From Globomyces pollinis-pini (taxonomy: Eukaryota; Chytridiomycota; Chytridiomycetes; Rhizophydiales; Globomycetaceae): a stretch of DNA of 41,546 bases. Location: the NCBI GenBank assembly GCA_025399215.1, contig MU621241.1, positions 1 through 41,546 of the forward strand. The letters are read 5' to 3'. Position 1 is the stretch's first letter. Each line of letters begins with the position of its first letter. Below the pieces are notes generated by a model that did no database searches, was not told where the DNA came from, and was given only the letters and a program-made list of their open reading frames with translations. This document shows positions 2,875 to 40,928 of the stretch, in pieces. Position numbers and translations under genes: made by a program.

Positions 2875-2912
2875 GCAATTGTTACTAGTAACAGATACTA
2901 GCAGCAACGCAA

Positions 2913-4672: not shown

Positions 4673-5068
4673 TTGTAATCTTTGTTGTACATATTTCGGC
4701 CCTTTTCGTGTTTTTTTTCTGAATTTCTTAAATTAATAATACTTTTAACTGTATTGATTTTTATTTTTAATGTGAGATAAAAAAATTAAATGGAGGTATA
4801 AGTGATTGAGGTGTGTTTTAGAGTTGGTAGGATTGATTGAGCATAGCCATAATCAATTGGTTTCTATGACGCGAAGGAATAGAATAGTTATGATTCGTAC
4901 AAATCGCGAGAGAACTTTACTTGAGATTCCTTAGGGTATTTAAAGATTGAAGATGTTCAATTTGAAATCATTTATACAAAGTTTGTGATGGTTTGACTCA
5001 GATGAAACACTCGTGTGAGTTCCCAAATTGGAACCTAATAGAAAAAGCCATCTGAACTTTACCAATCA
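4673..5068. other. Intergenic stretch
   Basis: No gene seen. It should hold the 3' end of the zinc-finger gene (AATAATA-rich sequence near 4733-4742) and the promoter of the sterol acyltransferase. A single CTTAGGGTA occurs near 4930. Confidence 0.55.
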
Positions 5069-6999: not shown

Positions 7000-7211
7000 A
7001 AATAATATAAGACCTCTTTTTTGTAGTCTGTCGTTTTAGATTCCCCGAAAGTGTAAACGTCTTATTTTATAGATCCGTGAGTATAGAATTAACGACAAGA
7101 CCAAAGAACACAAAAAATAATCTATGTTACTGCATAGTTACATAAAGTTAAAGAGTCAAAAAGTATATTAAATTCGGAATTTGTAAATAAACGATACAGA
7201 CTGGTAATACT

Positions 7212-7397
7212 TTAACGCATTGAAAACAGAGCAGAAAGTCTCTTCTTGATAGATTTCATAGAAGTATTTGATTTCCAAGATTGTCCAGTGGGAAACGATT
7301 CCAAATTCATATTCATATCCAGATTTTCTTTTGGAATAAGCGTGGAATTTTTGTTGATGAAATTGGCGTAATAGCTTGGAGGAAATGATTTTGTCAT
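7212..7397 (-). CDS. Small duplicated protein, copy 1 (61 residues)
   Basis: Hypothetical protein starting MTKSFPPSYYANFINKN. It shares almost its whole length with the frame at 8103-8291: an SFPPxYYANFINKN start, the block LIPKENLDMNMNLESFPTGQ, and a basic end SMKSIKKRLS. Several codons differ only at the third base between the copies, which argues for selection on protein. The frame runs 14 codons further upstream, but that part overlaps a TATAAAA motif whose counterpart in copy 2 is clearly outside the frame, so the internal ATG at 7397 is preferred. No family is recognised. The basic amphipathic end could bind membrane or protein. Confidence 0.65.
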   Translation of the reverse strand: MTKSFPPSYYANFINKNSTLIPKENLDMNMNLESFPTGQSWKSNTSMKSIKKRLSALFSMR

Positions 7398-8102
7398 ATT
7401 GATATCTTTGATGGTGGTGATCTGTTCTTTTATACTCATTACTCGATTTTAACCTTCAATCACATGATCTTGTTGGTTGATATCTACACAGCATTCCATC
7501 AACAAGTGAGGCCAATACCAAAGGAAGTATGAAACATTGTAATACTTTTACTTTGGAGTTAGTAGATCGCTGTCTACGATATACCTGACACAAAAGTTAA
7601 TATTTCGTTTATTTTTTTACAATTCGCAATTGAACATCTGCATTCAACCATATTAAGACTTCATGGCATCAGCTATTGTAAGATTCATTTGAAAAATACT
7701 TTAGTGTTAGCGTTATCTTGATTTATTTTGTATATTGCAAAAGTAGTTTCGTTAATCAGATTGTATTTGTTCAGCAAGACACAGCTAAAATCTGATAAAC
7801 CAAATCTAAACATGTTGTCTTTTGTAGTTAGCATTCGGAGAAAAGCGCGGGAAATCAATTGAATGAATGGCTTGGTCATTTCAACTTGAATAACGCGATA
7901 TGAATTCAGTGAACTTCTATTAGGCTTTAAATCAATGAGTCGATAATTGCTTCCGTATGAAAGAGTGTTTTGTACACCACATATTCATTTTAACATAGAT
8001 ACGTTACAGAATCTCACATTTTTTTATTTGATTCAAAAAATTTATTATTGTAAAAAAGTTGTAAGTAAACAAGAAATATTGAACAGTATGATTGAATTAG
8101 AA
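7398..8102. other. Stretch between the two small-gene copies
   Basis: Apart from the promoter of copy 1, no supported gene. A 64-codon minus-strand frame at 7685-7879 and a 61-codon plus-strand frame at 7947-8132 lack recognisable features; the latter overlaps the end of copy 2. DNA is strongly AT-rich. Confidence 0.5.
7428..7437 (-). promoter_or_regulatory. TATA-like box of small gene copy 1
   Basis: GAGTATAAAA on the minus strand, about 31 bases before the preferred start. The same ten bases precede copy 2 (8334-8343). Conservation at the same relative place supports a core promoter. Confidence 0.5.
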
Positions 8103-8291
8103 TTAGCGAGTCAATGTAAACATATTAGATAATCTTTTCTTGATCGATTTCATAGAGTTCGCTGATTTTGTAGATTGTCCAGTGGGAAATGATTCCAAAT
8201 TCATATTCATATCCAGATTTTCTTTTGGAATAAGCGTGACATTCTTGTTGATGAAATTTGCGTAATAGTTTGGAGGAAATGATTTTGCCAT
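8103..8291 (-). CDS. Small duplicated protein, copy 2 (62 residues)
   Basis: Paralogue of the gene at 7212-7397, in the same orientation and about 0.9 kb away. It starts MAKSFPPNYYANFINKNVTL and ends in a basic SMKSIKKRLSNMFTL. The central block that follows LIPKENLDMNMN is identical to copy 1. Similarity fades soon after the stop and upstream of the TATA-like box, so the duplication covered little more than the gene. Function unknown. Confidence 0.65.
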   Translation of the reverse strand: MAKSFPPNYYANFINKNVTLIPKENLDMNMNLESFPTGQSTKSANSMKSIKKRLSNMFTLTR

Positions 8292-8809
8292 AGTATGTTT
8301 TGATTTGATAGGTAATGGGATAATTATCTCTATTTTTATACTCTTTCAGATCAAGAACATGATCACATTTGCCCTGTCACATGCCCAGATTTCAATAGCG
8401 ATTGATCCACCAAACGTTGAGCCAAAAGAAGTAGGGGCTACTTCTTTTAGGTTTGCAGTGCAATGGCCTGTAGGAAACAAGTTCAATTAAATAATTAGAT
8501 ATGGTTGATTGTGAATCAACCAATCTACTAATAACATATCAATTAATAAATTACAAACTCTCTTCTGTTTAGTTACATTTGGATTGCAAGTCATTCAAAT
8601 TAGTATAGGGGATTTTTTACTATTGATTCAAGGAATAGGTAAAGTGAAGAACGCGTTGATTTGATAGAACATATGGAAGTGTGTTTGATATTTTAAAGGG
8701 AAGTAGAAATGATGTATTCCATATATATACCATAAGTCAATTACTTGTTGGGCCACTCTGACTCCCCACATTTTCATGGTGTTCTAACATTCAATGTGTA
8801 CTGGATAAA
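8292..8809. other. Intergenic stretch
   Basis: Holds the promoter of small gene copy 2 at its left end. A plus-strand frame at 8305-8490 has no early ATG and no recognisable domain. A TATATATA run near 8720-8728 could serve the frame starting at 8810. Confidence 0.5.
8334..8343 (-). promoter_or_regulatory. TATA-like box of small gene copy 2
   Basis: GAGTATAAAA on the minus strand, about 43 bases before the start codon at 8291, matching the box of copy 1. Confidence 0.5.
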
Positions 8810-9049
8810 ATGTCAATCACCCACAACAACCAAGCTAATTCTAGTATTCACAAAATGAGCGATCGTTCGCATGTTACAAACGCAGTCAGAAACAACGAAG
8901 TACAAATGTTTGAATTTCCAGTTACAATCGATTTGAGATATAGGGATGGTACCCCAACGAAATGTACTTACTCTCAACTTGTTCAACGAAGATTTGAAAG
9001 ATTTGTTGATGGAATCAAAGACATTATTCAAGGAGTTGAGTCCAGTTGA
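8810..9049 (+). CDS. Possible small protein of 79 residues
   Basis: A frame from ATG 8810 with mixed, fairly ordinary amino-acid content (FPVTIDLRYRDGTPTKCTY, then a basic helix-like QRRFERFVDGIKDII). No family is recognised. The opposite strand is also open over the same interval, which weakens the case. A TATATATA sequence lies about 85 bases upstream. Confidence 0.35.
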   Translation: MSITHNNQANSSIHKMSDRSHVTNAVRNNEVQMFEFPVTIDLRYRDGTPTKCTYSQLVQRRFERFVDGIKDIIQGVESS

Positions 9050-10248
9050 GGTTCTACTCATTGTACCAAGTAAATAGCACAATAAATTATATTGTATTTG
9101 AACATTCATCTTGTCAAGTTCAAATAGTATGTTTGATTAAAGGTAAAGATCCACCAGCCAATAAATAAGCCAGTCAGTACCCCAAACGTGAACCAGTTAA
9201 CATGTAGTCAAAAGATTCTGTCTATTTAGCATTAACACTAGCGCTAGTTTGCCACAGAAAGATCAAACTAGCGACTCTGTGCATGCGATACAAAAAACGG
9301 TATAAAAAGACCAAACTTGCACAGTAAGAATCGGTTGAATACAATTTATTTTAATGTACAAATCCTAACAATACCTATAAACAAAAGTTAGATTGAAATT
9401 CAATATATGAGATGTATGAATAGTAAGATGGAAAGGGTTTAGTTCAGTAATGCACGTTGTCCAACATAAAGTCTTTCGGAACAGGTCTGTGTGATTAGAA
9501 ATCATCAGCACTAACCCCAATACCAACGCGAAACAAATCAAAATGACTTACCTATAGACAAACAATTATGGAAGAAAAGATGGTTGAAATTCTACTTATA
9601 AACACATGTGGCTTTTCATAAATTCTCCGACCACTATAAATTCAAAAAACAAAAAATTAGTGACTTGGAAAACCAGTCAACATTTCGATGTTGTGATGAA
9701 AATCGCCTTCGGAGTCTACAAACAAGATCTCGTATCTTACCAATACTCTGGGGAAAGTCCTCGAAACAAATGGCAGAAAGTGTCACTGCGAAAGCGGGTT
9801 CTGTATTAGATACTGATTAGCAAAGTTAGCTTTACGTCGGTTATCTATTACTGTCTTGTTATAGCAAAGTCATGCGATTACTTCTTTGGAAGTCACCCAA
9901 CGAGGCTTAATCATTGGTTTTCCCACCCTTTTTTAAATCCTAATTTGAAATTATTGTCCTTTGCTACACTCTGTGATTCGTCCTTTTCAATGACGTCTTC
10001 CAATTTTTCAGCAAAGAAGATTAATTTTCTGCGTTTCTTTATCCTTTAGTATTTTTTTTACTGAAGATAGGAGACGTGAAATACATTTATTTGAGGTTTT
10101 TATAAAATCATGAAGACACTCTTAGTAGGAGTACTTTCGAACACACTGATTTGTTCATTGACGCTAAGGCTGGACGGTACGCTTGAAACAAGTGAATTTG
10201 TTATGATGCTTGTGTTGGGCTTTTGTAAAAAAGATTCTTAACTTGAAA
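9050..10248. other. Long gene-poor stretch with a hairpin and a coding-like remnant
   Basis: No complete gene could be built. It holds the hairpin at 9242-9273. On the minus strand, 9911-10033 reads 40 codons then a stop, with plausible protein character (FFAEKLEDVIEKDESQSVA), preceded by a CAG acceptor; the upstream joinable frame soon meets a stop with no ATG, so this may be a gene fragment. Plus-strand frames at 9606-9820 lack features. A 43-codon plus frame at 10110-10241 starts hydrophobically and overlaps the ankyrin-gene leader. Confidence 0.5.
9242..9273. repeat. Hairpin, 10-bp perfect stem with 12-base loop
   Basis: CGCTAGTTTG (9242-9251) pairs with CAAACTAGCG (9264-9273) around the loop CCACAGAAAGAT. 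Stem and loop lengths equal those of the hairpin at 2913-2944. Confidence 0.7.
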
Positions 10249-12264
10249 ATGAAATTGTCAGAATTATCGTTGGATATTCTGGAAATAATCGCATCTCATT
10301 TGCATATCATGGACTATCAATCCTTACGATTTACTTGTCGAAATTTATACCAATTGAATATATCCCCTTCATTAACAATGGAAGCTTATCAAAATTCTAT
10401 TATGCATTTTAAAAACTGTCCTCTCTTAATGAGACTACGATTGGATTCAATTCATTCGTCTCAATTCATTCATCAACCTTTCATGGTATTCCAATTCATG
10501 TTCAATCATCAACAAGTGGATTATTTATATTTCATTATAACTCATTTCGATTTACCATACAATTGCAAATCATTCTTGTTGGAACAAAGTTGCAAGTTTG
10601 GAGTGTTGAAAATTGCTGAACATCTATTACTTAATGATAACTCTTTTGATCTTTTTAAATATTTTAATCATTCAGAATCAAGACGAATTCATCCTTATTT
10701 AAATCATTGTGTTGCTGGCAATCACGTTGGTTTAGTTCGACTGCTGATTCAAGACAGTAGAATTGATTTATCTACACATAAAAATAGGCTAATATGTTGG
10801 AGTTGTTTATATGGTTACGAAGACATTGTCGAAATTGTATTGTCTCGTTCAAATGTGGATCCATCCGTGAATAACAATTTTCCTATTCGAATTGCATCAC
10901 GAAATGGACATTTTGCCATTATAAAACGATTACTTCAACATCCATTGGTCGATCCGTCAGACTATCATGATGGCGCTTTAAGGTGGGCATCTCTACATGG
11001 ACACTTAAATTGTGTTAAATTATTGTTGAATGATAGTAGAGTCTCATATCACTCTGCTTTGTACATTTCATCCAATGAAAAATATCTGCCATGCCTAGAA
11101 TATCTAACACATTTACCAATTGCAGCAACGGAAGAGAATGGATGGTTTAATTTTGAATCAGCATTAAGTCTGTTAAACTCAAAAACGGTACGAATCATAA
11201 AGCAAGATCCTAGATTCCAATCTGAAGAAAGAATTATCCAACTTCTTTGTAGAACAATTGAATGCGATGATGTAGAAAGCCTAAAAGTTCTGGTCGAAGA
11301 TCTAAAAATCAATCTATTAGAGTGTAAAAAATTGTATATCAGTCTAATTAAATCTTCCAATCAAATCTTTGATTTTGCAATCTATCATCTAGATATTGAT
11401 CCCGTTTTTTACAACACATTAACTCTACGAATGTATGAACATTTCCCAGATGTAAATGATGTACGATTGATCCGAAATTCAAAATGTATAAACCCACATG
11501 AAAACATGTGTGAACTTGTTCGGCTGGCCGCACAGTTAGGGGAATTTCAATTATTAAAGCAGTATTTAAACAGTGATGATGTAGATGCAGGAATATGCGA
11601 CAATCAGGCAATACAATATGCAGCAGAAAATGGACATGCATCATGTGTTCAAATTTTATTGGAAAATGCCAAGGTCAATCCTTCTGCAGGTAATAACCAT
11701 GCATTTCGATCAGCCGTTAAAAACGGTCACTTGGATTGTGTTCGATTACTTCTGGGTGATGCTCGAGTTGATCCTGCCGCTTTATATAATGAATCTATAA
11801 GAACAGCTTCTTTAGGGGGACATGAAGCCATCTTACGACTGTTAATTGCTCATCCAGATGTGAATGTTTCAGCTGAAAATGAAGAAGCAATTAGAAATGC
11901 TAGTAAAAATGGTCATATTGATTGTTTAAATCTATTACTTTCACATCCAACAGTAAATCCGGGCACGAGTGCCAATTCAGCCATTATCCAAGCAGCAATC
12001 AATGGACATACTGAATGTGTAAAAGCTTTATTGAAACATCCAAAAGTCAATCCAGCTGCCAGAGATAATGTTTTGGTTCGATTGATGGCATCTAAAGGAG
12101 AATTGGAATGTTTGAACTTGATCTTACAAGATGAACGTGTTGATCCCACTGCATGTAACGATATGGCAATCCAGGAAGCATTTAAAAATGGACATCAGGA
12201 ATGTGTTTTTTTGCTGGCTTCTGTAATTCCTAACAACCAGAGTAAAGAGTTGGAATTGTTATGA
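10249..12264 (+). CDS. F-box protein with ankyrin repeats, intronless
   Basis: A 671-residue single-exon protein. Residues 1-39 form an F-box (LSELSLDILEIIASHLHIMDYQSLRF...CRNLYQL), the SKP1-binding part of SCF ubiquitin ligases. Ankyrin-type repeats follow in two clusters, about residues 115-285 and 425-665, separated by a diverged stretch. The repeats read NNxAIRxAxxNGHxxCVxLLLxxxxVxP, and the C-terminal cluster is regular, with units such as NGHASCVQILLENAKVNPSA and NGHTECVKALLKHPKVNPAA. Proteins of this plan are abundant in chytrid genomes. The likely role is substrate recruitment for ubiquitination; the substrate is unknown. The ATG at 10249 is chosen because it places the F-box at the start; the frame is open further upstream without an ATG. 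No introns, unlike the neighbouring housekeeping genes. Confidence 0.9.
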   Translation: MKLSELSLDILEIIASHLHIMDYQSLRFTCRNLYQLNISPSLTMEAYQNSIMHFKNCPLLMRLRLDSIHSSQFIHQPFMVFQFMFNHQQVDYLYFIITHFDLPYNCKSFLLEQSCKFGVLKIAEHLLLNDNSFDLFKYFNHSESRRIHPYLNHCVAGNHVGLVRLLIQDSRIDLSTHKNRLICWSCLYGYEDIVEIVLSRSNVDPSVNNNFPIRIASRNGHFAIIKRLLQHPLVDPSDYHDGALRWASLHGHLNCVKLLLNDSRVSYHSALYISSNEKYLPCLEYLTHLPIAATEENGWFNFESALSLLNSKTVRIIKQDPRFQSEERIIQLLCRTIECDDVESLKVLVEDLKINLLECKKLYISLIKSSNQIFDFAIYHLDIDPVFYNTLTLRMYEHFPDVNDVRLIRNSKCINPHENMCELVRLAAQLGEFQLLKQYLNSDDVDAGICDNQAIQYAAENGHASCVQILLENAKVNPSAGNNHAFRSAVKNGHLDCVRLLLGDARVDPAALYNESIRTASLGGHEAILRLLIAHPDVNVSAENEEAIRNASKNGHIDCLNLLLSHPTVNPGTSANSAIIQAAINGHTECVKALLKHPKVNPAARDNVLVRLMASKGELECLNLILQDERVDPTACNDMAIQEAFKNGHQECVFLLASVIPNNQSKELELL

Positions 12265-12395
12265 ACTACCTATATTAAGTTCAGATCAGTTTTATTTGTA
12301 ATAAATGCCTTCTACACATCAAAGATCGTTTATTCGTTTATATCCAAAACCGTGATTAAGGGTAAAATAATTTGTTGTCCGATTTTGTCTATTAT

Positions 12396-13425
12396 ATGGA
12401 TACCTTAAATGCATCACACATCCCTGTAGAATCATGCAATTCTTGGTCCTATTACTCACCAGTTCCAAACTTGAATCTAACACCTGAAGAATCTAAAAAG
12501 GGATACATGTTGGGAGTTGATGAAGCAGGTAGAGGTCCAGTTTTAGGTAGTATGGTATATGCAATTGCATATACTCCTGTAGATTATCTTGATAAACTCA
12601 AAGAAATGGGATTTGCTGGTAATTCAAATCATAACTCATTCTTTAGATTCAAAAGTATTAAAACCTGAACAAAGAGATACACTTTTTGAAGATATTAAAC
12701 AAACTGATTGGATTGGTTGGGGAGTTCATGCATGCTCTCCTGCCGAAATATCTGAATCTATGTTTAGAAGGTAAACTACCAAATTTAATCAAATCAAGAA
12801 ATAAATACAATCTTAATGAAATTGCTCATGATACTACTATCAATATGATCAAAGAAATATTATCAAAAGGAGTGAACTTGACCGAAGTAATGATTTTATA
12901 ATTGTTAAAAACTTTTTAGATTTATGTTGATACGGTTGGATCACCAGAAAAGTATCAACAAAAATTATCAACGATATTTCCTCAAATATCAATTACTGTT
13001 ACCAAAAAAGCTGATTCCCTTTTCCCCATTGTAAGTGCTGCTAGTATTTGTGCAAAAGTAACAAGAGATTTATCAATTCAAAATTGGAATTTTATTGAAT
13101 CAATAGAGATTGATAAAGAATTTGGATCCGGATATCCATCTGGTAAATTCAAATGAACGTTTATTTGTTTTTCATAGATCCACAAACTGTCAAATGGTTA
13201 AAGGATAATTTGAATCCTATCTTTGGGTTTCCAAATATTATTCGTTTCAGTTGGAGTACTGTAGCCAATTTATTGGAAAGCCATGGTGTCCAGTTTGATT
13301 GGGGTTCTGAAAATGTTCATATAGAACAGTCGAATACAATTGATAAATTCTATTCAAAAACAAAAGGTCACCAACGTGATAGCATCTATCAATCATTGCG
13401 ACTCAGCCATGTGGTCAACTTTTAA
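12396..13425 (+). CDS. RNASEH2A: Ribonuclease H2 subunit A (catalytic)
   Basis: Nicks DNA 5' of embedded ribonucleotides and degrades RNA:DNA hybrids in the nucleus. The spliced product is about 301 residues, typical for the family. Catalytic sites are visible: [10 protein letters not shown] (D42, E43), [11 protein letters not shown] from residue 74, [11 protein letters not shown] and [22 protein letters not shown], then GSGYPSDPQT and [13 protein letters not shown]. Introns 12620-12647, 12771-12798, 12887-12919 and 13143-13177 (28-35 bases) keep frame. The start is the first ATG of the frame. It lies 131 bases after the ankyrin gene on the same strand and converges with the GIGYF gene, with only 80 bases between stop codons. 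Confidence 0.95.
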
Positions 13426-13505
13426 TCAATACTTGGTATTATGTGCATAATATAACTCAATTTATACACTTATCAACTTATCAAATCAGTTTGACATGTC
13501 AGCAT

Positions 13506-16178
13506 TTATTTCTTATTCTTCTTCTTTTTGTTACCAGATTGGCCTTTACCAACCACTGCAGTAAATTTGTTATCACTTGCAAATGTAGTGATTGGATTTG
13601 TACTAAGTTGTGGAGCTTTACCATGACCACCAACAGCGGTCCAACCTGCGTCATCATCTGTTGAAGCAGCAGCAACTGGTTGTTTCTTTGCAGGTTCATT
13701 TGTTGGTGTCCAAGGGGATTGCCCAGACAATTCAGCTCGTCGCTTTTGAATAAATTCATCTGCAAATTTTCGGGAGTCGATCGCAGTAAATCCTCCAATA
13801 GAATGATCACAGATCATAGTGATTGTGGATGATTCTTTGATGTCAACAGACATTAAAATTGAGATAAACTCATCAACTACAAGTTAATTTTTATATGACA
13901 TACCATTTAGAGATGTTTCTTTCGATACTGGCTTAAGGGTATCACGACACCATTTTAACATTTGAGCAGATGCACCATTAGATTTTGTTAACGGAGTAGG
14001 AGCTTCGCCATTTGCATTGGAAGGAGAACCAGTAGTATTTCCTGTAGCACCAGCATAGTTTAATCGACCTGGGCGGTTAGCAGTTGCTGAAACTGATGGA
14101 GACTTTCCAGATGTAATAACGGTAGGTGATTTACCAACAACTTTCCAACCATCAGCACCATCCACAATAACAGGGCTTGGAGCGGATGCCTTCAAAACAG
14201 GTCCGGTAGCAACTACGACAGGAGCTTTTGATGCAGCAACTCTAGCAAACGACATAGGAACAGCACTGGCACCAGCTCCAGACATAACTGATTTGGCATA
14301 TCCTTTCACTTCAGTGGCCTTCACTTGCTCAGATTGCTGTTTCTGTTTAGCTTCATCAGCCATAATCTCTGCCAAAGTTTTCTTTGTTGGTTTTGGCGCA
14401 GCAGCAGTGGCCCATTGAGCACTTGGGATAGGAGATGATTTAACAGCAGCCTCTTGTTTAGCTAGCGATTGAGCTTCAGCAAGAATTGATTTTTCTGCAA
14501 CTTTGCTATTGATTTTTTCTCGAGTTTCCTGTTCTTTCTGTTCAGATGCTTGAATATCCTTCAATGGAATTTTTTCCTTCTTTTTCTCGACGTTTACGGC
14601 ACCCCATGCTGGTTTAACGACAATTTCAGGAACTGGAGCAGGTGGTTCCACCACTTGTGCTTCTGAATCATCTACAACAGGTTCTGGTGGTGCAACTTTT
14701 TTGTTTTTCTTTTTGTCCTTTTTCGTTGCATTTACTGGTGGTTTAGGGTCTTCTTGGGTTGGAGCAGGTGAAGGATCCATTTTTTTAGGCTCAATGACGT
14801 TTGATTTCATAACAGGGCTGTTTTCTTTTGTAGGCGGTTTTACTTCGGCTGGTACAGGTGATTTTTGCATGGGAGACTTTGTAGGTGACGGGACAGATGA
14901 CTTGGGGGATCCATCCTTAACCACTGGGTTCGAAGACTGTTCCTCAGTTTGATTCTCAGTAGTGAACCGAGGCGCAAATGGATTTGCTGAAAAAGGAGAA
15001 GGACTACTGTATCCAAATGAGCTACCACCAAAATCAGTGTTAGCTATAGAAGTGTCATTCCTTTGACCCATTGAAAAGTGAATCTGCACTTGGCGCATAT
15101 AGTATGCACGTTCAAGCGCTTCCTGTTCCCTAAGTGATACCAAGAATGGCTCATCACCACCATACTTTTCAACAAACTGTAAAAGTGGAATAAAATCGGT
15201 GTCTCCAACACATTGAATTGGTAAGTTGGCAGGGAAAAAGCCAGCAATATACCAATCATGCATTTGTTGGGAAGTATAAGAACCTAACAAATTAGCATAC
15301 TGCTATAATAATAAAATGATGGTGGTCAGAAAAAGTAAAATAGGTATTGATTTACCTTGAACGCGTCCTTGTGGATCTTGATAATTCCATTGTGGGGGAT
15401 TAAATTGGAAAGGTGGAACTTGACCAGTGGGAAAGGGAGGTGCCGCAGTATTAGTGAGAGACGGGAAAGGAGCAGAAGATGGGAATCCAAATTGTTGAAC
15501 TTGTGGAGCAAACCCTTGTTGTGGTGCCCCAAACATTGGGTTGAAAGCTGGTTGCTTACTTTGATTTCCAAAACCAAATGGCATATCCATAACATCTCGT
15601 CCTCCTGAATTTGACAAGAACTGAGCAGCCTTAAATGGATCATCCAAAGGGTTTACTTTGTTAGGAGGGGACGGACGTGCAGAACCTTCAACTTCATTGT
15701 CCAAGATAGACCAGTTGTTCTTTGTTTGTAAAATGGCATTATCTGTTTTTTTAATCGCCAGGTTATTGAATCCAAAGACACCATCAGCACCAAAAGAGCC
15801 ACCTGCTTCTGCAGGCATATCCCACAATTCAGGATTGTTGCGTTCCTTATCTTTGTTTCTTGGTTTGGCATCTCTGACAGCTCCCACTTGTCTAGGTTGC
15901 TTTGGAGTGCCCACAAAATTAGGTCTTCGATTAGATTCCGAGTTAATCGAAAGTAATTGAAATAGCTTCTTTTCAGTATCAGATAAAGGTAAATGAGCTA
16001 ATGGAGGCCGAGGTTCCAACACGTACGAAGTAAGGGTAACATCCAAATCTTCAGGAAGCGGATAATCGGTAGCAAACAGAGACAGCAAGTAATCTCTTGA
16101 ATAGACGAAGGGATTATTCGGAGGGTTTCGGTTTTTATGGGTTTGTTTTGGTTTAACTTCAACAAAAGCGTCTGACAT
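13506..16178 (-). CDS. GYF-domain translational repressor (GIGYF/Smy2 type)
   Basis: GIGYF proteins repress translation of selected mRNAs by bridging 4EHP/eIF4E-like cap-binding proteins to proline-rich partners. The product is about 857 residues. The N-terminus has a canonical cap-protein-binding motif YSRDYLL (26-32, Yx4L-hydrophobic), in the context DYPLPEDL...LSDTEKKLF shared with GIGYF1/2. The GYF domain (about 262-320) reads WNYQDPQGRVQG, then SQQMHDWYIAGFFPANLPIQC, with the usual GYF tripeptide as GFF. The middle is rich in P/S/A/K and low in complexity, with a charged helix near KDIQASEQKEQETREKINSK. The C-terminus carries WTAVGGHGK and a lysine tail. Introns: 15284-15355 (72 bases) splits the GYF domain; 13877-13903 (27 bases) is near the end. 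Frame is kept. Confidence 0.9.
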
Positions 16179-26569: not shown

Positions 26570-27397
26570 TCATTTTAGATAATATATTAAGAAACACAGA
26601 TACGAATAAATTGACGTTCTTTGAGGTAAACGACCCCACTGAACCAGAGCAGAACAGGAAAAGTAACAACCGTAAACGCAATCGCAATCACATACCCACA
26701 CCAAACTGGTATCGAGAAAAAGTCCGCTAAAAACGGTATCAGTAAATTCGTATTCCAATTCCCAGTATAAAGTCCAAATGGTAATAATGTCAATACAAAC
26801 ATAACAATAGAAGACGGGAATTTAAACAATACCAAATACAAAAACATTTTCCAAACTGTTCCGTTAAGTACCGTACTTTTCACATGCTTTAGCAGTCCAT
26901 TCTCATAATTCAATTCCAGATTGAGAGAATCCATACCAACTTTCTCTTCAAACAGAAAAGAGTGCATATAGATTTCGAATTGAAATAGGTAGATCCAGGA
27001 TCGACATGAGATGTACAGAAGCGCGATGCCGATAGGAAAAAGGATCAGTAGTGGGATGCTGGTGGAAGCCGTTGTTAGTCCCCACACAAATACAAACACA
27101 CCCCAAGGGAAGTTGAACAGCAGGTAGTAGATGTAGGTTGCGTACAAATTGATCTGAAATACATGTGCGAAATAATTGAATTGGATCATTAAGTTAATTT
27201 TGATTTTGGCTATTCTTTGGATGTTAGCGATAATTTATACGTTTTCAGATGCTTTTTTTGTTGGTCACGAACGCATTTAGTGTGTAAAAAAAGCATAAAG
27301 CAAACACAAAACGGATCATTTCATTTACTACGAACGTATTGATATGACATACACACTACAAAGCAATATGTAGCGGGACTGTGTACATGGCAATCAA
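26570..27397. repeat. Left arm of an approximately 0.83 kb inverted repeat
   Basis: Reverse complement of 32082-32907. The arms are nearly identical over coding and 5' flanking sequence, with scattered single-base changes and small indels. Identity stops abruptly after ATCTAAAATGA at the 3' side of the gene and fades near TTGATTG upstream. The arms are 4.7 kb apart. Confidence 0.92.
26587..27189 (-). CDS. 200-residue membrane protein, copy 1 (putative sensor-domain type)
   Basis: Intronless. At least four hydrophobic segments are arranged as two similar halves: YIYYLLFNFPWGVFVFVWGL followed by IPLLILFPIGIALLYI, then WKMFLYLVLFKFPSSIVMFV followed by VWCGYVIAIAFTVVTFPVLL. The YLxFxFPxxxxxFV pattern at the start of each half recalls the prokaryotic putative-sensor family (Pfam PF13796), recalled from memory and not searched. 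The two halves join through a soluble stretch (EEKVGMDSLNLELNYENGLL). Copy 2 at 32288-32890 differs at two residues (L/V in VWGxTTAS, S/T in LLWFxGVV). Function unknown; a membrane sensor or lipid-associated role is a guess. Confidence 0.8.
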   Translation of the reverse strand: MIQFNYFAHVFQINLYATYIYYLLFNFPWGVFVFVWGLTTASTSIPLLILFPIGIALLYISCRSWIYLFQFEIYMHSFLFEEKVGMDSLNLELNYENGLLKHVKSTVLNGTVWKMFLYLVLFKFPSSIVMFVLTLLPFGLYTGNWNTNLLIPFLADFFSIPVWCGYVIAIAFTVVTFPVLLWFSGVVYLKERQFIRICVS

Positions 27398-32081: not shown

Positions 32082-32907
32082 TTGATTGTCATGTACACAG
32101 TCCCGCTACAGATTGCTTCGTAGTGTGTATGTCATATCAATGCGTTCGTATTAAATGAAATGATCCGTTTTGTGTTTGCTTTATGCTTTTTACACACTAA
32201 ATGCGTTCGTGACCAACAAAAAAAGCATCTGAAAACGTATAAATTATCGCCAACATCCAAAGAATAGCCAAAATCCAAATTAACTTAATGATCCAATTCA
32301 ATTATTTCGCACATGTATTTCAGATCAATTTGTACGCAACCTACATCTACTACCTGCTGTTCAACTTCCCTTGGGGTGTGTTTGTATTTGTATGGGGGGT
32401 TACAACGGCTTCCACCAGCATCCCACTACTGATTCTTTTTCCTATCGGCATCGCGCTTCTGTACATCTCATGTCGATCCTGGATCTACCTATTTCAATTT
32501 GAAATATATATGCATTCTTTTCTGTTTGAAGAGAAAGTTGGTATGGATTCTCTCAATCTGGAATTGAATTATGAGAATGGACTACTGAAGCATGTGAAAA
32601 GTACGGTACTAAACGGAACAGTTTGGAAAATGTTTTTGTATTTGGTATTGTTTAAATTCCCGTCTTCTATTGTTATGTTTGTATTGACATTATTACCATT
32701 TGGACTTTATACTGGGAATTGGAATACGAATTTACTGATACCCTTTTTAGCGGACTTTTTCTCGATACCAGTTTGGTGTGGGTATGTGATTGCGATTGCG
32801 TTTACGGTTGTTACTTTCCCTGTTCTGCTCTGGTTCACTGGGGTCGTTTACCTCAAAGAACGTCAATTTATTCGTATCTGTGTTTCTTAATATATTATCT
32901 AAAATGA
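32082..32907. repeat. Right arm of the approximately 0.83 kb inverted repeat
   Basis: Reverse complement of 26570-27397. It covers about 200 bases of upstream sequence and the whole membrane-protein gene and ends about 17 bases after its stop codon. Confidence 0.92.
32288..32890 (+). CDS. 200-residue membrane protein, copy 2 (putative sensor-domain type)
   Basis: Copy of the gene at 26587-27189 on the other strand, 198 of 200 residues identical (V in VWGVTTAS, T in LLWFTGVV). Intronless, with the same two-half membrane layout. At the codon-184 region and elsewhere the nucleotide changes are few and mostly silent. It faces ceramidase B tail to tail (100 bases apart), mirroring the arrangement of copy 1 and ceramidase A. 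Confidence 0.8.
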   Translation: MIQFNYFAHVFQINLYATYIYYLLFNFPWGVFVFVWGVTTASTSIPLLILFPIGIALLYISCRSWIYLFQFEIYMHSFLFEEKVGMDSLNLELNYENGLLKHVKSTVLNGTVWKMFLYLVLFKFPSSIVMFVLTLLPFGLYTGNWNTNLLIPFLADFFSIPVWCGYVIAIAFTVVTFPVLLWFTGVVYLKERQFIRICVS

Positions 32908-34971: not shown

Positions 34972-36447
34972 TTATTTAGCATGTTGATCAATAGAATTGA
35001 AATGCGTTGGATACTTTTTCAACAACCGATTCAATTCCGCTTCTTGTTCAACAAGATGTTGAGGTAATGTATCATAAACATCAGTAAATAAACCTTTCAA
35101 GGATGGTTTTTTACGTTTTTCGGCTTTACCAAAGGCTTTCAAGACTTGTTTACGGATTTCACTACTTTTGGTTTTTTCTTTTTCTGCATCCCATAGGTTT
35201 TGTTTTTCAAGATATTTACGGAATCGATTGATGGGGGAGGCGGATTCTTGCCAATTGGCTACTTCTTGCTTGGATCGATAAGCCGATGAATCATCTGATG
35301 TACTATGATGTGATACACTTGTTTGTTAGTATAAAATCTTACCGATAAGTCATGGCTTCAATCAATACTGGTCTAGATTCACTTAATGCAATTCGTTTCG
35401 CTTCCTTGACAGAATTGTAAACAGCCTACAATAATCAATATGTTACAAAAAAATTTACGAGGGCATCATTTCCATCAACACGAATGGTAGCAACTCCATA
35501 ACCATGACCTCGTGCTGCAATTCCATCCCCTCGATATTGTTCAATACATGGTGTTGAAATGGCATATCCATTATTTCTACAAAAGAAAATACATGGACTT
35601 TCAGTTGTAGCAGCCATATTTAAAGCAGCATGAAAATCACCCTCAGAAGCCGCTAATCCATAAAAAACATTATAACCAAACCTGATAATTGTTAATTCAA
35701 AAATGTTATGTTTACCTCCATCCCCGAAATAGCATAACGATACCGCTTGTTTACCTTCGAGCTTGAGAGCGTAAGCAGATCCAACAGCTTGTGGTATTTG
35801 AGTCCCCAAAGGTGAAGAAATAGTTTGAAAATTCAATTTATTGGATCCATAATGTACAGGCATTTGACGACCTTTACCATAATCCAAATCATTGGAATAC
35901 ATTTGATTCATAAATTCATCCAATGTAAATCCACGATAGAGTAATACTCCAGCTTCACGATATTGACTTGAATTTAGATACTTGAGATTACCCATAGATG
36001 ACATCATCGAGAGTCAAAGCAGCAGCACTTCCCATATGAATAGCTTCTTCTCCATAACTAGTCATGTAGAATGAAATACGACCTTGACGTTGTGCTTCAT
36101 ACATGATCATATCCATTGTATTCAACGTAATCATATTTGTATACATTTTCAATAAAGTATCATTATCAATCTATAAATTGTTAATGAAAAGAAATAACTG
36201 ATAATGGATCTTTAGAAATGACATTTCCATCGGTATCCAAGAACCTATAGGTAGGAATAACAGGCCAATCCCGATCAATTTTCAAAGATTCAGTATATTG
36301 TGATAAAGGTGCACCAGGAAAAGCAACATTTGTTTGACTATACAATCGATTTAAACAGGATTGATTATAGGTTGGTTTATAAAGTCTGGAGGTCGGTTTA
36401 TAGAGTTGGTAACATCTGTTTAGGATTTTCATGGATTGTATCGTCAT
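34972..36447 (-). CDS. BCKDHA: Branched-chain 2-oxoacid dehydrogenase E1 component, alpha subunit
   Basis: Thiamine-diphosphate-dependent decarboxylation of the 2-oxo acids of Val, Leu and Ile in mitochondria. The product is about 433 residues. A presumed transit peptide ([20 protein letters not shown]..., rich in K/R/Y, no acidic residues) leads to [13 protein letters not shown]. Conserved blocks: [42 protein letters not shown], the cofactor motif [18 protein letters not shown] with [25 protein letters not shown], and the phosphorylation-loop region [16 protein letters not shown]. Introns: 36171-36198, 35967-35991, 35653-35715 (two units), 35426-35458, 35318-35342. Frame is kept. The frame is open upstream of the chosen ATG (36447); an internal ATG at 36432 is also possible. 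Confidence 0.95.
35653..35715 (-). other. Chain of two complete GT-AG intron units in BCKDHA
   Basis: The 63-base intron is 35682-35715 (34, GTAAAC...TCAG) plus 35653-35681 (29, GTTTGG...TTAG), joint AG|GT. The conserved GDGAASEG cofactor motif spans the outer splice sites and fixes them exactly. Confidence 0.85.
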
Positions 36448-36626: not shown

Positions 36627-38862
36627 TCAATTCAAATGTGTCATTTCTACAGTTCCAGTCACTCTATCCATTAAAGGAATTTCTTCACGTTCATCACCAT
36701 TTTTACCACCCACAAAAGCAATTGCATCCAATCGACCTCTTCCAACATCTACCTTACTAAAAATAAACACAGGCATGACAAGCATGATCAATAAAAACCA
36801 AAAACAATATCTTTTATCACCTAATTCGCCAATGATGCCTACAATCAGTGGTCCGATCCATGCTGAGCCTTTATCGGTGATTTCTAAGAGTTTGGTCAAA
36901 TAAAAAGGTTACCGTAGAGGGAAAAAAATTCGGATTCGTGTCCGATGGGTAATAATTCTGAGAAGAGTACTCGACAGGAGGATTGGGATGCACCTATGAT
37001 GAATGGCATATCATGATACCTATTATATGATTTTATATCACCATACCTAAAATCAATCAAATTTGCATCGACAATTACCTATCAATGTCAAATTTAAATA
37101 GACAAATACCTATCATCAAATATTAAAAGAGTCACAAACCTAACTATGAGCAACGTAAAGAACAAACCTAGTAAAAACCCATGATAGAAAGCCAAGACAT
37201 AAATTTCCCATTTGGCTTGAATACCAATGGAGCCTTTTGGGGTCAGAAACCCCATCAATCCATATAACGGCAACAGACAATACAAAGCACTTTGACGCAC
37301 CAAGACATCCTTTGTGGACCAACGGTAATGATGTTGGATGGAAATCCAAATACGGTTACCAAAGGCGGCAGCAAAGGGGGTGATGATGGCAGCAATGATC
37401 AGTCCGGATTGGGATACACCCAGTTCGGATTGGCAGTAAAGGATAGCTACGGTGGAGATTGTAAAGATTCCATCGGAAAATATAAACCAACCAAGTAGGA
37501 ATGTGAATAAATCTTTGAGTTGGGCGGCTTTTGATAAAGTGGAGCGAACTTGGTGGATCAATAAAGGAGGGTACTTACGACTTTTGAGTGAGTAGAGAAT
37601 GTAATTTTCACCGGGTGGTAGTGGTGGACCAGGTCTTGGTTTCAGGTGTGTATTTGTATATGTCAAGAGAGTGATTAATTGCCATAAACAAGCGAATGCG
37701 ACACCAATTTGAAGGGGATATACGGCAGTGACACCCCATTGGGTACCAGATCCGACGGCGAGAGCAAAGACAGCAGCAATGATCAGTTGGATGACAGCAG
37801 CCAGGTATCCGACTACGAAACCATGGCTTGATATTTGGTTACTGATTTGTTCACGAATGGCTGGGTCATTGTTGGATTCGATGACGGTTGGGTGGAATCG
37901 TGTTAGAATTGGTACCTGCGATGTTAGTTTTAAGGATTGGTTTGAGTAATTTAAGACTGACAAATTGAGATTCTATTAGAATTGTTTCTGAATGAATGTA
38001 ATGAATCACTAGAAGTGATTCTTAAGCGTAATATACTTAGGATGAATGAAATTATTCAAAAGTGATTTTGACGAGTGATGGATACTATGAATCAAAAAGT
38101 GATTTTTGTGTAGATGATAAATGGAAGAAATACAAGATCTATGGTTTACCCAAGCGTAATAAAAGACAAAGGAAGCGCCATGAAAGACGTTTGCAAAGAT
38201 AAAGAGGAATATAGCTGACCAAAAATGAGCTAAGAAGTGAATGAAATCAAAGTACCATCTTTTGTAGCAAAGATGATAAAGGAACCTAATAGAGCACTTA
38301 TGGCAGCAAATCCGATAAGAAAAGTTTTACGATGATTCTACATTTAGAGTGGGAAGAAGGTACTCCATGATCTGCGATAGCACCAAGAGAGATAAAGAGA
38401 ACGAATTGGATTAATACAGAAATTGTAGTTGCGACTACACTTGATTAGTATGAGAATGGATAATCAAGACACGTAATTAGTATGAGAATGGATAATCAAG
38501 TCATTTAATTAGTATGAGAATGGATAATAAAGAGAATGTGAATTTGAGTAAATGATAGAGAACATACAAAAGACAGCGGAAGAAGTATCAATGAAATAGT
38601 TGTAAAATTTCACGTCACAAGAATAAGCTTCGTTAGTGATACATGGGATGGAATGATTTGAATGTTGTACACCCGAATGAGCTTTTGTATTATTATAATA
38701 AATGTATACCGGCCATATGTTGTAGTATTATAGGAAAAAAGACACCATTAGCTAGTACACTATATTTTTTTAGGGTATGAATGATTACGAGTAACCTTCA
38801 GCAGCGAAAGCGAAAGAATACCAAGCTTTTAATTCTAAATCAGCGACCGGAGAGTAATCCAT
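36627..38862 (-). CDS. ATG22: Atg22-like vacuolar MFS transporter
   Basis: Fungal Atg22 exports amino acids from the vacuole after autophagic breakdown. The product is about 513 residues, near the family length, with about 12 hydrophobic segments. Marks: MDYSPVADLELKAWYSFAFA, then FFPIILQHMA, an early lumenal cysteine-containing loop and FIDTSSAVF; ISVLIQFVLFISLGAIADH; FHGASFVFYYAW then VPILTRFHP; FLLGWFIFSDGIFTI; and FHGFLLG-like YHGFLLG then ASQSSCRVLFSELLPIGHE, LYEITDKGSAWIGPLIVG. Introns: 38752-38795 (44), 38682-38709, 38435-38567 (133, with 32-base repeats), 38338-38363, 38230-38255, 37916-38149 (234), 36994-37167 (six units), 36884-36912. Total keeps frame. A further in-frame 30-base intron may exist in the loop encoded near 37550-37580. 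It shares a 136-base promoter with the Tbf1-like gene. Confidence 0.85.
36994..37167 (-). other. Chain of six complete GT-AG intron units in the Atg22-like gene
   Basis: The 174-base intron divides with no remainder into 37140-37167 (28), 37110-37139 (30), 37079-37109 (31), 37047-37078 (32), 37020-37046 (27) and 36994-37019 (26). Each unit starts GTTT, GTAT or GTAA and ends TAG, and all five joints read AG|GT. Units 2, 3 and 4 look related (xxTTGTxxxTxxAAATTTGAxxTTGAT pattern). The outer borders are set by YHGFLLG joined to ASQSSCRVLFSELLP. Confidence 0.88.
37916..38149 (-). other. Long 234-base intron with short internal repeats
   Basis: Conservation of ...FVFYYAW / VPILTRFHP around it fixes the borders. 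Inside are several copies of AATCACTTTT-like sequence and a small palindrome AATCACT-AGA-AGTGATT (38003-38019 region). Unlike the chains it contains no AG|GT joint. Confidence 0.7.
38435..38567 (-). repeat. 133-base intron with three 32-base tandem repeats, each with a TACTAAT motif
   Basis: On the plus strand the 25-base cores start at 38444, 38476 and 38508, an exact 32-base period. Two cores are identical and the third differs by one base. On the coding strand each copy carries CATACTAAT, a perfect branch-point consensus. The repeat length equals that of the intron units in the chains. The last copy together with its flank reads as GTCTTG...TGTAG, intron-like by itself. Confidence 0.85.
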
Positions 38863-38870
38863 AATTTATA

Positions 38871-38983
38871 ATTAGGGTTATTCTCTAATTAGGGTTACTT
38901 CTTTTGAATTAGGGTTAGTAATTTATAATTAGGGTTATTTTGGTAGGGTTATGATATGAATTTGTTAGGGTTGGTTAGGGTTA
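38871..38983 (+). promoter_or_regulatory. Seven TTAGGG-type boxes in the shared Atg22-like/Tbf1-like promoter
   Basis: TTAGGGTTA or close forms at 38872-38880, 38889-38897, 38909-38917, 38929-38937, 38944-38951, 38965-38972 and 38975-38983, all in the same orientation. They fill the 136 bases between the two divergent start codons. The spacing is irregular (about 10-20 bases), unlike a true telomere repeat. Predicted sites for the telobox protein encoded immediately downstream. Confidence 0.85.
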
Positions 38984-38998
38984 GTATAATTTTTTTGA

Positions 38999-40928
38999 AT
39001 GGAAACAGCTGTAGTAGATTCATTACTTTTGATTGATTTGGATGCTTATAATTACATTTCAGCTTTTCTATTTCAAGGTAAATTAAAAAAACTATTACCA
39101 AAAATAAACTAAATAACCCTACTCAAAATCATATACTAACCCTACCCTAAATCATATAACCCTACTAATAAATAACCCTACTAATCATATAACCCTACTA
39201 ATCATTAAATCAAATAACCCTACTAATAAATAAAAATTAACAAATAGGAATGGGAACTGAATTGTTCCAAGTACAAACTATGGATTTACAACAAAGACAA
39301 AATTTATTCAGAAATGATTTATTAGCTAGTAACTAAAAATATTCTAATCAAAAAGATCATGCCTTCTTTTTATACCTAAAACGTTCAGAATTATTACCAA
39401 TACCTACTCTAAAACGTTTAAATATCGCTGCTGCTCTATTAGCTATAGAAGAATTAGCTAGACTAAGAAATACTCAATTAGATCCCGCTCCAGCTGAAAT
39501 ATTAAAACATCATCAACGTATCTCTTCTTGTTACCTAAAATTAATCGACTTTTTACAAGGTGATTCTTTAACTATTCAAGAAAAATCAGAATCAATCGTC
39601 ACTAATTTACTCATCGAATTCAAAACTTTGGTATAAATCTTATTTCTAATCTCTCTAGTACTTTTTAGCAGATTTGGCCGGTATGTACATCCATATTCTA
39701 TCAACTATATATCACTTTCAATCAACACTCTATAATACACTATGTATCATATTACTTCAAAACTCTATCATATTCATATCACATTCAATCAAAACTATAT
39801 AGTATTTGATCAACACGATGTATCATATTTGATCAAAACTCTTTCATATTCAATCAAAACTCTATCACATTAGATCAAAGTATCATATTAGGTCAAAACT
39901 CTATCATATTCATATACCTTTCAATCCACACTATGAATCATATTAGATCAAAACTCTATCATATTCTCCTTGCAAATTCTTGTGTGTCAATAGACACTTA
40001 CTCTTCTTTCAAACTAACAAACCAGGTGGGTACATGAAAGACGGCATTCACCACCAGTACGTAAAAGAAGAAGCCAAACAACGTTGTTCATTACTCCTTA
40101 GCATCAACGAGGAAGATTCACAAAACTTTTCTCCAGACTTATTACCAAACCTTAATGAAACAATCAAAAACCGTCAAGATCTAGTACATACACTACACTA
40201 ACATACAGATATTCGAATGGATTGATACCGGTGAAGTCGCCCTCGACCCAAATGTATCCATCGAAAATGAACAAACATTACTCAAATGTCTCATCTCCAT
40301 TGCCATCTCTGCCAATACTGATATGCAACCCATCTTACATCCTTCTTACCATATAAATTCTTCCCCAAGAATTCAACAAATTTCAAAAAATTTATTGGAA
40401 TCATTACGAAAATCTCAATCTACGTAATGTATCTACTATTGACTCGTAGTGCTGGTAAACAAGATCCCCTTGGACTGGTGATTCGTAAACCTAAAAAACG
40501 TGCGGTTCCTTTTACTCCTGTTGAAGAAGGTATTTCATCGTTTTTTAATTAGTTTTCTTAGGTATCCTCTCTTGTTTTTAATTTCTTTTAGGTATTTTGT
40601 AATCTTTTAATTTCTCTTAGGTAGTTTCTAATCTTTTAATTTTCTCTTAGGTATTAGATTGCTGATAATTAACCTCTTAGGTATTTGCATCAACTAACCT
40701 CCAGGACAACGTAAACGCAAAGCATGGACCGATGCCGAAACCGAAGCCTTACGACGAGGTATTGAACGATATGGCAACGATTGGGTCACCATCCAACGAG
40801 AATTCAAACAAGATTTAATTGATCGACATCCTGTCAGTCTCAAAGATCGAGCTCGATCCATGCGACGGATCCTTACCAGGGCGGGTAAACCTTTGGGTGT
40901 TTGGGGTGGTGCTGGTAAAGATAATTAA
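38999..40928 (+). CDS. TBF1: Tbf1-like TTAGGG-repeat-binding protein (TRFH-like domain plus C-terminal Myb/telobox)
   Basis: Fungal Tbf1 and animal TRF proteins bind TTAGGG repeats at telomeres and,  for Tbf1, at promoters. The product is about 377 residues. Residues 1 to about 260 are mostly helical, fitting a TRF/Tbf1 dimerisation domain (LLLIDLDAYNYISAFLFQG, LKRLNIAAALLAIEELARL, HHQRISSCYLKLIDFLQG, LLKCLISIAISANTDMQPIL). A basic link (VIRKPKKRAVPFTP) leads to a Myb repeat RKRKAWTDAETEALRRGIER, then YGNDWVTIQREF, with the telobox PVSLKDRARSM, closer to the Tbf1 form (LKDKARN) than to the TRF form (LKDKWRT). Introns: 39078-39247 (170), 39329-39355, 39631-39658, 39681-40025 (345), 40184-40208, 40424-40449, 40530-40704 (six units). 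One exon is only 22 bases (39659-39680). Total keeps frame. Confidence 0.88.
39115..39222 (-). promoter_or_regulatory. Seven CCCTAA-type boxes inside intron 1 of the Tbf1-like gene
   Basis: AACCCTA or CCCTAA at 39115-39121, 39138-39144, 39145-39150, 39158-39164, 39174-39180, 39191-39197 and 39216-39222, several in the longer unit ATAACCCTACTAAT. This is the complement of the promoter boxes, so the two groups point toward each other across the 79-base first coding exon. Several units overlap a TACTAAT branch-point-like motif. Confidence 0.85.
39681..40025 (+). repeat. 345-base intron built of degenerate short repeats
   Basis: The exon borders are fixed by phase: a 22-base exon ending GGCCG and the next exon starting GTGGGTAC. 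The interior is a degenerate satellite-like array of ATCAAAACTCTATCATATT variants, about ten copies. It ends with CTAACAAACCAG, a good branch point and acceptor. Only one internal AG|GT exists, so it is not a clean unit chain. Confidence 0.7.
40530..40704 (+). other. Chain of six complete GT-AG intron units in the Tbf1-like gene
   Basis: The 175-base intron divides with no remainder into 40530-40561 (32), 40562-40591 (30), 40592-40620 (29), 40621-40650 (30), 40651-40680 (30) and 40681-40704 (24). Each starts GTA; the first five end CTTAG or TTTAG and the last ends CCAG. All five joints read AG|GT. Units 3 and 4 are close copies (TCTAATCTTTTAATTT versus TGTAATCTTTTAATTT); unit 2 shares their 3' half. 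The last unit has the best branch point, CTAAC. The outer borders join PVEE and GQRKRKAW of the Myb region in phase 1. Confidence 0.9.

What the first reader, a model, noticed from the sequence alone, without database searches (positions are those of the whole stretch)
36994..37167. Six intron units chained head to tail inside one intron (Atg22-like gene)
Seen: a 174-base intron partitions exactly into six units of 26-32 bases, each GT...TAG, with five AG|GT joints. Single introns in this DNA have the same size. Known: nested twin introns (stwintrons) and recursive splicing are described, but long head-to-tail chains of full minimal introns are not something I recall being described. Inference: whole intron units multiplied and may be removed one by one, each step recreating a GT at the exon edge, i.e. 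exons of length zero.
Basis: partly seen in the sequence, partly recalled or inferred. Interest (0 to 1): 0.93.

Follow-up and report, generated by a model that had tools for sequence, protein, structure and literature searches.

The report
Chains of tiny introns without exons
In the genome of a chytrid fungus, some introns are chains of two to eight complete tiny introns set end to end with nothing between them; they seem to grow by copying a unit in place, and each unit looks able to be spliced out on its own.

Summary
Window 36994-37167 (minus strand, Atg22 gene of Globomyces pollinis-pini, Chytridiomycota) is a 174-nt intron made of six GT...TAG units of 26-32 nt; 0 of 20000 shuffles tile. 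The window also holds a second six-unit chain (40530-40704, Myb-like gene) and a doublet (35653-35715, BCKDHA gene). Genome-wide, three TAG|GT joints at intron spacing occur 197 times, against 8 at a longer spacing. Whole-chain removal restores conserved protein in Atg22, BCKDHA, UBE2H (7 units), gamma-tubulin (4 and 2), Ran (3) and CLK kinase (5). Joint-defined units resemble single introns in length, donor and branch-point signal. Adjacent units are more alike than units of different chains, and two tested units had no copies elsewhere, so local duplication is likely. Unit-by-unit removal is inferred, not shown: no RNA data were available, and the same gene has 133- and 234-nt introns without joints. 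Closest known: ratchet points, dual-specific AGGT arrays, stwintrons. Ten literature searches listed no such chain.

The parts
37140..37167 (-). Atg22 chain unit 1 (28 nt, GTTTGT...TAG)
   Evidence: sequence; model cut
37110..37139 (-). Atg22 chain unit 2 (30 nt)
   Evidence: sequence; model cut
37079..37109 (-). Atg22 chain unit 3 (31 nt); no other copy found within 3 mismatches in the genome
37047..37078 (-). Atg22 chain unit 4 (32 nt); resembles unit 3 (0.78 identity; TRF period 31, 85% match)
37020..37046 (-). Atg22 chain unit 5 (27 nt)
36994..37019 (-). Atg22 chain unit 6 (26 nt)
37168..37915 (-). Atg22 coding sequence upstream of the chain, ending ...YHGFLLG (a further 3n intron near 37560 is also removed in the annotated protein)
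36913..36993 (-). Atg22 exon downstream of the chain, GASQSSCRVLFSELLPIG...
36884..36912 (-). ordinary single 29-nt intron of the same gene, for comparison
37916..38149 (-). 234-nt intron of the same gene without any AGGT inside (evidence against unit-wise removal being obligatory)
   Evidence: absent from P0001
38435..38567 (-). 133-nt intron of the same gene with a 3 x 32-nt tandem repeat that is not in AG|GT register
   Evidence: absent from P0001
40530..40704 (+). second six-unit chain, 175 nt, Myb-like gene (units 40530-40561, 40562-40591, 40592-40620, 40621-40650, 40651-40680, 40681-40704; units 3 and 4 are 0.90 identical)
   Evidence: the join is supported by reading frame; the Myb domain starts after the junction, so homology does not test it
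35653..35715 (-). two-unit chain (34 + 29 nt) in the branched-chain 2-oxo acid dehydrogenase E1 alpha gene
   Evidence: ungapped alignment through the junction; shuffles tile in 255 of 5000

Best explanation
The stretch is a chain of six complete minimal spliceosomal introns sharing flush AG|GT joints, one of a genome-wide class in Globomyces pollinis-pini. Shown: the whole chain is intronic and is absent from the annotated protein; joint-defined units resemble single introns in length, donor and branch-point signal. Inferred: chains grow when a piece one intron long is duplicated in place with its edge at an AG|GT joint, so that each copy is at once a spliceable intron and nearly neutral. Inferred: the spliceosome, which here mostly handles introns of 20-38 nt, recognises single units (intron definition) and removes them one at a time, in any order; each removal rejoins AG to GT, so every route, including occasional skips over several units, ends in the same mRNA.
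For: Whole chains are removed: my hand-spliced 351 aa of Atg22 match annotated P0001 (reported as 100% over 100%; one residue differs, at another intron that I had cut differently); UBE2H, 7 units, annotated P0122 has exactly the joined sequence and the join aligns ungapped to yeast Ubc8; ungapped through the junction also for BCKDHA, gamma-tubulin at both its chains and Ran, with no gap at the junction for CLK2; junction positions. Units are full introns: 161 joint-defined units peak at 28-29 nt, +3 is A 72% and T 22%, against 30% A after TAGGT in the random sample (80 of 263); branch-point scores equal those of 129 single introns (p 0.49) and exceed shuffles; a YTRAY motif is present in 53% of units, 55% of singles and 24% of shuffles. 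Duplication: identity of 76 adjacent pairs exceeds that of 2000 between-chain pairs (rank test p 8e-7; 6.6% against 0.2% at 0.8 identity or more); the Ran gene has two identical adjacent 32-nt units with no other copy found within 3 mismatches.
Against: No RNA data. Introns of 133 and 234 nt without joints exist in the same gene, and 11 of the 14 high-confidence introns of 45 nt or more in the random sample do not tile (some may be false calls). Of the three that tile, one (L039:8836-8897) makes a stop codon at its join and is doubtful as modelled. Most adjacent units have diverged to near background identity (median 0.64 against 0.60), so duplication is shown only for a minority of pairs. Internal branch points could be kept because units arrived recently rather than because each is used. 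Chain donors may be a little weaker than those of singles (A at +3 72% against 85%, not tested). A tandem repeat of intron-like period outside AG|GT register exists too.
Confidence: 0.7

Rival explanations
1. One-step removal: the spliceosome pairs the first donor with the last acceptor and excises the chain as one intron; internal joints are relics of tandem duplication.
For: The same gene has 133-nt and 234-nt introns without joints, absent from the annotated protein. The annotated models P0001 and P0122 are met by removal of the whole chain in any manner.
Against: Internal units keep branch-point strength equal to single introns although most unit bodies have diverged to near background. 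In the random sample 136 of 151 high-confidence introns are 20-38 nt, so short pairing is the habit of this spliceosome.
Confidence: 0.18
2. Repeated insertion: unrelated introns were inserted one after another at AG|GT by reverse splicing or as introner-like elements, rather than copied in place.
For: Most adjacent units are not visibly related (median identity 0.64). Every joint counted is an AG|GT proto-splice site, by the definition of the search.
Against: Two tested units had no other copy found in 18.5 Mb within 3 mismatches. The near-copies of chain units found among 1007 short introns are all below 0.9 identity (26 at 0.82 or more, in a loose comparison without control). Adjacent units are on average more alike than units of other chains.
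Confidence: 0.25
3. Chance: AG|GT words happen to fall at intron spacing in A+T-rich introns.
For: Doublets are weak singly: shuffles tile in 784, 92 and 119 of 5000 for the three random-sample doublets and in 255 of 5000 for the BCKDHA doublet.
Against: 0 of 20000 shuffles tile for each of the three long chains tested; 197 against 8 triple joints genome-wide.
Confidence: 0.02
4. Regulated chain: retention of chosen units controls expression through frameshift and decay of the mRNA.
For: Of 34 model-called chains, 30 contain at least one in-frame stop if retained whole.
Against: Stops are expected in A+T-rich sequence; the BCKDHA doublet, for one, is 3n and has no stop. No conservation or RNA data.
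Confidence: 0.07

Closest known systems
Recursive splicing at ratchet points (Drosophila, PMC8605326, abstract and passages seen)
   Same: AG|GT joint in which acceptor and donor are juxtaposed; removal in steps; apparent zero-nucleotide exons.
   Different: There the points lie in long introns and need a cryptic RS-exon. Here the spacing is 22-34 nt, up to eight units in a row are bounded by joints, and an RS-exon of about 50 nt has no room between joints.
Dual-specific splice sites, AGGT arrays such as human UBC (PMC10809524, abstract and passages seen)
   Same: A tandem array of AGGT words that can act as 5' or 3' splice site, tied to tandem repeats.
   Different: UBC units are coding ubiquitin monomers, spliced stochastically to vary the protein. 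Here units are non-coding, intron-sized, carry their own branch-point signal, and are absent from the proteins tested.
Stwintrons, spliceosomal twin introns of fungi (PMC5639578, PMC8469720, passages seen)
   Same: Complex intervening sequences in fungi removed by consecutive reactions.
   Different: A stwintron is nested: one intron splits the donor, branch site or acceptor of another. Here every element is whole and units lie side by side.
Intron gain by tandem duplication or repeat expansion (Cryptococcus, PMC2395259, abstract and passages seen; potato, PMC4974935, abstract start in a listing only; AGGT duplication model recalled, not read)
   Same: New introns arise by local duplication of DNA.
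   Different: In Cryptococcus the gained introns are copies of other introns of a gene with a repetitive region; nothing in the passages seen describes copies sharing flush joints inside one intron position, as here.
Introners and introner-like elements (PMC4457414, listing only; otherwise recalled)
   Same: Intron multiplication within a genome.
   Different: Introners are dispersed near-identical copies; the two chain units tested were not dispersed.

Membership tests
Stwintron | Internal intron interrupts donor, branch-point element or acceptor of an external intron | tested here: not met
   All six Atg22 units start GT and end TAG with flush joints; no element is split.
Stwintron | Consecutive splicing reactions needed | not testable with these tools
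   No RNA data.
Recursive splicing at ratchet points | Juxtaposed acceptor and donor, AG|GT | tested here: met
   Seven TAG|GT joints in the Atg22 chain counting the exon edges.
Recursive splicing at ratchet points | RS-exon with its own donor downstream of the point, in a long intron | tested here: not met
   The next joint follows after 26-32 nt; the whole intron is 174 nt.
Recursive splicing at ratchet points | Intermediates spliced to the point | not testable with these tools
   No RNA data.
Dual-specific splice site array | AGGT used both as 5' and 3' splice site | not testable with these tools
   The sequence allows it; use needs reads.
Dual-specific splice site array (UBC-like) | Units are coding repeats | tested here: not met
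   Units are absent from P0001 and P0122; 30 of 34 model-called chains have in-frame stops.
Introner-like elements | Dispersed near-identical intron copies | tested here: not met
   Two units tested, no other copies found in the genome within 3 mismatches.
Intron gain by tandem duplication | Adjacent copies more alike than unrelated introns | tested here: met
   Rank test p 8e-7 as a set, but 76% of adjacent pairs are below 0.7 identity.
U2-type spliceosomal intron | GT donor, branch-point motif near the 3' end, AG acceptor | tested here: met
   (YTRAY in 53% of units against 55% of singles).

The most novel reading that the evidence does not exclude
A genome-wide class of exon-less intron arrays: intron-sized minisatellites whose repeat edge is a working splice joint, so that the spliceosome removes any number of units by any route and makes copy number invisible in the protein. 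Chains would grow and shrink as neutral tandem repeats, make lariats from units of only 22-34 nt, and provide an order-free splicing substrate with up to eight or more successive zero-length exons.
Probability: 0.6. Interest if true: 0.88.

Novelty: new variant of a known kind. Interest (0 to 1): 0.8.

Why it matters
If the units are spliced singly, these chains are natural test objects for questions now approached with long animal introns: how the spliceosome chooses among many equivalent donors and acceptors, whether introns are taken in a fixed order, how small a lariat can be, and how introns multiply. They also give a visible DNA route for intron growth (duplication in AG|GT register) and catch copies at many ages, from identical to unrecognisable. 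They may explain broken gene models: the UBE2H model of the relative JEL0801 starts just after the place where the chain lies in G. pollinis-pini (whether JEL0801 has the chain is unknown).

Tried and rejected
Chance and composition: rejected for long chains. The reversed pattern offered by the tool (115 control hits) was rejected as a sole baseline because that word is nearly as frequent at the wrong spacing (97). A count of TAGGTA spacings in the 200 kb random sample alone was too sparse to decide (1 pair). My splice model over-calls: for example one called gene runs from 2565 to 13591, across the RNase MRP RNA gene. In the random sample exon length 0 occurred 21 times against 51 for lengths 1 to 5 together, so perhaps half of its doublets are false. 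I therefore used high-confidence introns and protein homology. The model was trained on all sequence held, chain-selected loci included.

Flanking-exon test: chains of 3 or more units have AG upstream and GT downstream in 6 of 18 against 3 of 129 singles. I do not rely on it: most of these loci were chosen by a pattern of three AG|GT joints, which favours such flanks.

Dispersed copies among 1007 short introns: 26 unit-intron pairs at 0.82 identity or more, best 0.89; with short A+T-rich sequences and gaps I took these as background, but made no control for it. MCM8, 7 units: the join is in frame, but the alignment has an 8-residue gap next to the junction, so it is not counted as proof. Random-sample doublet L039:8836-8897: a stop codon forms at its join. 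Paralogues of Atg22 (C13, C46): only the protein search was possible; one (C13:118610-119062) aligns through the chain site, about residue 392, with no room for an intron (151 codons for 154 residues, no stop). The annotated paralogue P0025 seems to retain a short intron as protein; not followed. Rfam found only RNase MRP. ARAGORN found no tRNA.

Full report
What was claimed. A 174-nt intron at 36994-37167 was said to split exactly into six GT...TAG units, which might be removed one by one.

Where it is. The window is contig C152 of an 18.5 Mb assembly in 459 contigs. One residue differs, at another intron that I had cut differently. Pfam ATG22 covers residues 10-472 of P0001. The chain lies on the minus strand.

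The six units are 28, 30, 31, 32, 27 and 26 nt, all GT...TAG. Both exon edges are TAG|GT too, giving seven joints in a row. None of 20000 dinucleotide shuffles tiles into two or more GT...AG units of 20-38 nt. A splice model trained on 311 kb of this genome (window and chain-selected loci included), with a flat length prior above 36 nt and no rule for chains, cut it into the same six introns.

It is removed whole. The joined exons read YHGFLLG|ASQSSCRVLFSELLP. The annotated protein has exactly this, and Atg22 proteins of other chytrids (for example P0004 and P0007) run through the same place without a break. If all of the chain were retained there would be four in-frame stops.

More in the same window. 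At 40530-40704 (+) a second chain has six units of 32, 30, 29, 30, 30 and 24 nt in a gene with a Myb-like domain after the junction. Its 175 nt are not a multiple of three, and units 3 and 4 are 0.90 identical; the domain match starts after the junction, so this join rests on the reading frame alone. At 35653-35715 (-) a 34 + 29 nt doublet interrupts the E1 alpha gene of branched-chain 2-oxo acid dehydrogenase; the joined protein aligns without a gap to the solved 2-oxoisovalerate dehydrogenase alpha subunit (1v11) through the junction CYFGDG|AASEGD.

Genome-wide. Three TAG|GT joints at unit lengths 22-34 occur 197 times; the same word at 42-54 nt occurs 8 times, one of them inside a chain. 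The reversed word gives 115 and 97, so it has hardly any spacing preference. The tool calls its counts lower bounds. The 100 rows printed of the 197 fall at 61 separate places, the longest run having seven rows, that is nine joints and eight units (C7:65413-65641). A few rows look like coding sequence (for example C38:59674). By proportion there would be about 120 places; this is an extrapolation. A wider pattern with CAG or TAG gives 343 (reversed control 238), including coding repeats.

A sample not chosen for chains. In 20 stretches of 10 kb, 151 introns had well-supported coding exons on both sides: 136 were 20-38 nt, none 39-44, 14 were 45 nt or longer, one was shorter than 20. Of the 14, three tile exactly, all as doublets. 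Such doublets are weak singly: shuffles tile in 784, 92 and 119 of 5000, and one of the three (L039:8836-8897) makes a stop codon at its join. Long chains are thus a minority feature, but a clear one.

Other chains tested by homology. UBE2H/Ubc8: seven units, 195 nt; the joined protein aligns ungapped to yeast Ubc8 (8pmq_E), and the annotated G. pollinis-pini protein P0122 has exactly the joined sequence MKLLMSDYEV, while the model of Globomyces sp. JEL0801 (P0121) begins at MSDYEV, just after the chain's place. Gamma-tubulin: four units at residue 55 and two at residue 134, ungapped. Ran: three units at query residue 14, ungapped from residue 8. CLK-type kinase: five units, no gap at the junction. 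MCM8: seven units, in frame, but a gap lies beside the junction. With Atg22 these are six of the 17 model-called chains of three or more units (five pass, MCM8 is unclear) and two of the 17 doublets (BCKDHA and gamma-tubulin). I picked them because their proteins are well conserved.

Each unit looks like an intron. From 95 rows I took 161 distinct units defined only by TAG|GT joints. Their lengths peak at 28-29 nt, with one unit below 25 although 22 was allowed; the pattern cuts them off at 34. Position +3 is A in 72% and T in 22%; in 129 high-confidence single introns it is A 85% and T 11%, so chain donors may be slightly weaker (not tested). After TAGGT words in the random sample A is 30% (80 of 263). 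A branch-point motif (consensus near YTRAY) learned from the single introns scores the same in units (p 0.49) and far above shuffles (median p 7e-16 over 20 shuffles). In the 18 chains with three or more units (17 model-called plus the Myb one) middle units score 2.91, first 2.88, last 2.80, against 1.95, 1.82 and 1.31 for one shuffle of each. Internal units are thus not weaker than outer ones; these cuts come from the model, whose acceptor profile reaches 8 nt upstream.

How chains grow. Adjacent units are more alike than units of different chains (rank test p 8e-7; 6.6% of 76 pairs at 0.8 or more against 0.2% of 2000); non-adjacent units of one chain are intermediate (p 0.005). In the Ran gene two neighbours are identical over 32 nt, and no other copy was found within three mismatches; the same holds for Atg22 unit 3. 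I read this as local duplication, with old copies worn down to their splice signals. Duplication is not confined to the AG|GT register: a 133-nt intron of the same gene holds three 32-nt repeats without joints. The chain site is empty in at least one Atg22 paralogue, by protein alignment.

How it most likely works. Because 136 of 151 high-confidence introns in the random sample are 20-38 nt, the splicing machinery should pair a donor with the nearest usable branch point and acceptor. In a chain every such step leaves AG joined to GT and a shorter chain. The order does not matter, and a skip over several units does no harm, since all routes end in the same mRNA. This is inference. The strongest argument is that branch-point signals persist in internal units whose bodies have diverged. 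It is not conclusive, because units that arrived recently would also keep their signals, and because introns of 133 and 234 nt without joints show that longer pieces can be removed without such joints.

What is known. Recursive splicing uses AG|GT ratchet points, but in long introns and with an RS-exon (PMC8605326, abstract and passages). Dual-specific AGGT sites form an array in human UBC, with coding units and variable products (PMC10809524, abstract and passages). Stwintrons are nested, with a split donor, branch site or acceptor (PMC5639578 and PMC8469720, passages). Repeat expansion has made introns in Cryptococcus (PMC2395259, abstract and passages). None of the papers listed by ten searches announces chains of complete spliceosomal introns in its title or abstract start. 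Several listings were capped (for example 25 of 298), I opened only five papers and no whole text, and the library holds only open-licence papers, so this is a limited statement.

Verdict. The chain is real, intronic, and one of a class. I file it as a new variant of known multi-step intron removal, closest to ratchet points and AGGT arrays, and a proven member of neither by the tests made. Unit-wise removal is likely, not proven.

Noticed in passing
window 9694-9915 (+): RNase MRP RNA gene, Rfam RF00030, 87.8 bits.
   Followed up: no
window 26587-27189 (-) and 32288-32890 (+): Two nearly identical 200-aa ORFs in opposite orientation about 5 kb apart, suggesting an inverted duplication.
   Followed up: no
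window 38869-39234: Arrays rich in TAACCCTAA-like words, resembling interstitial telomere repeats (resemblance recalled), beside the 5' part of the Atg22 gene.
   Followed up: no
window 39708-39966: A+T-rich tandem array with overlapping periods from 18 to 55 bp.
   Followed up: no
window 38435-38567 (-): Intron with three 32-nt repeats, each with a branch-point-like TACTAAT, but without AG|GT joints: intron-sized duplication in another register.
   Followed up: partly
window, whole: Ten tandem arrays of period 22-36 in 41.5 kb (two of them the chains) against five in the 200 kb random sample: this contig is unusually rich in such repeats.
   Followed up: no
P0025, paralogue of Atg22 in the same genome: The annotated protein carries an extra run GKMTIELICI before EITDKG, where a short 3n intron seems to have been kept as coding; small introns of this genome may be missed in annotation.
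   Followed up: no
P0121 (Globomyces sp. JEL0801): UBE2H model starts just after the chain's place and contains a further run that corresponds to an unspliced 27-nt intron of the G. pollinis-pini gene; gene models in this genus may be damaged by tiny introns.
   Followed up: partly
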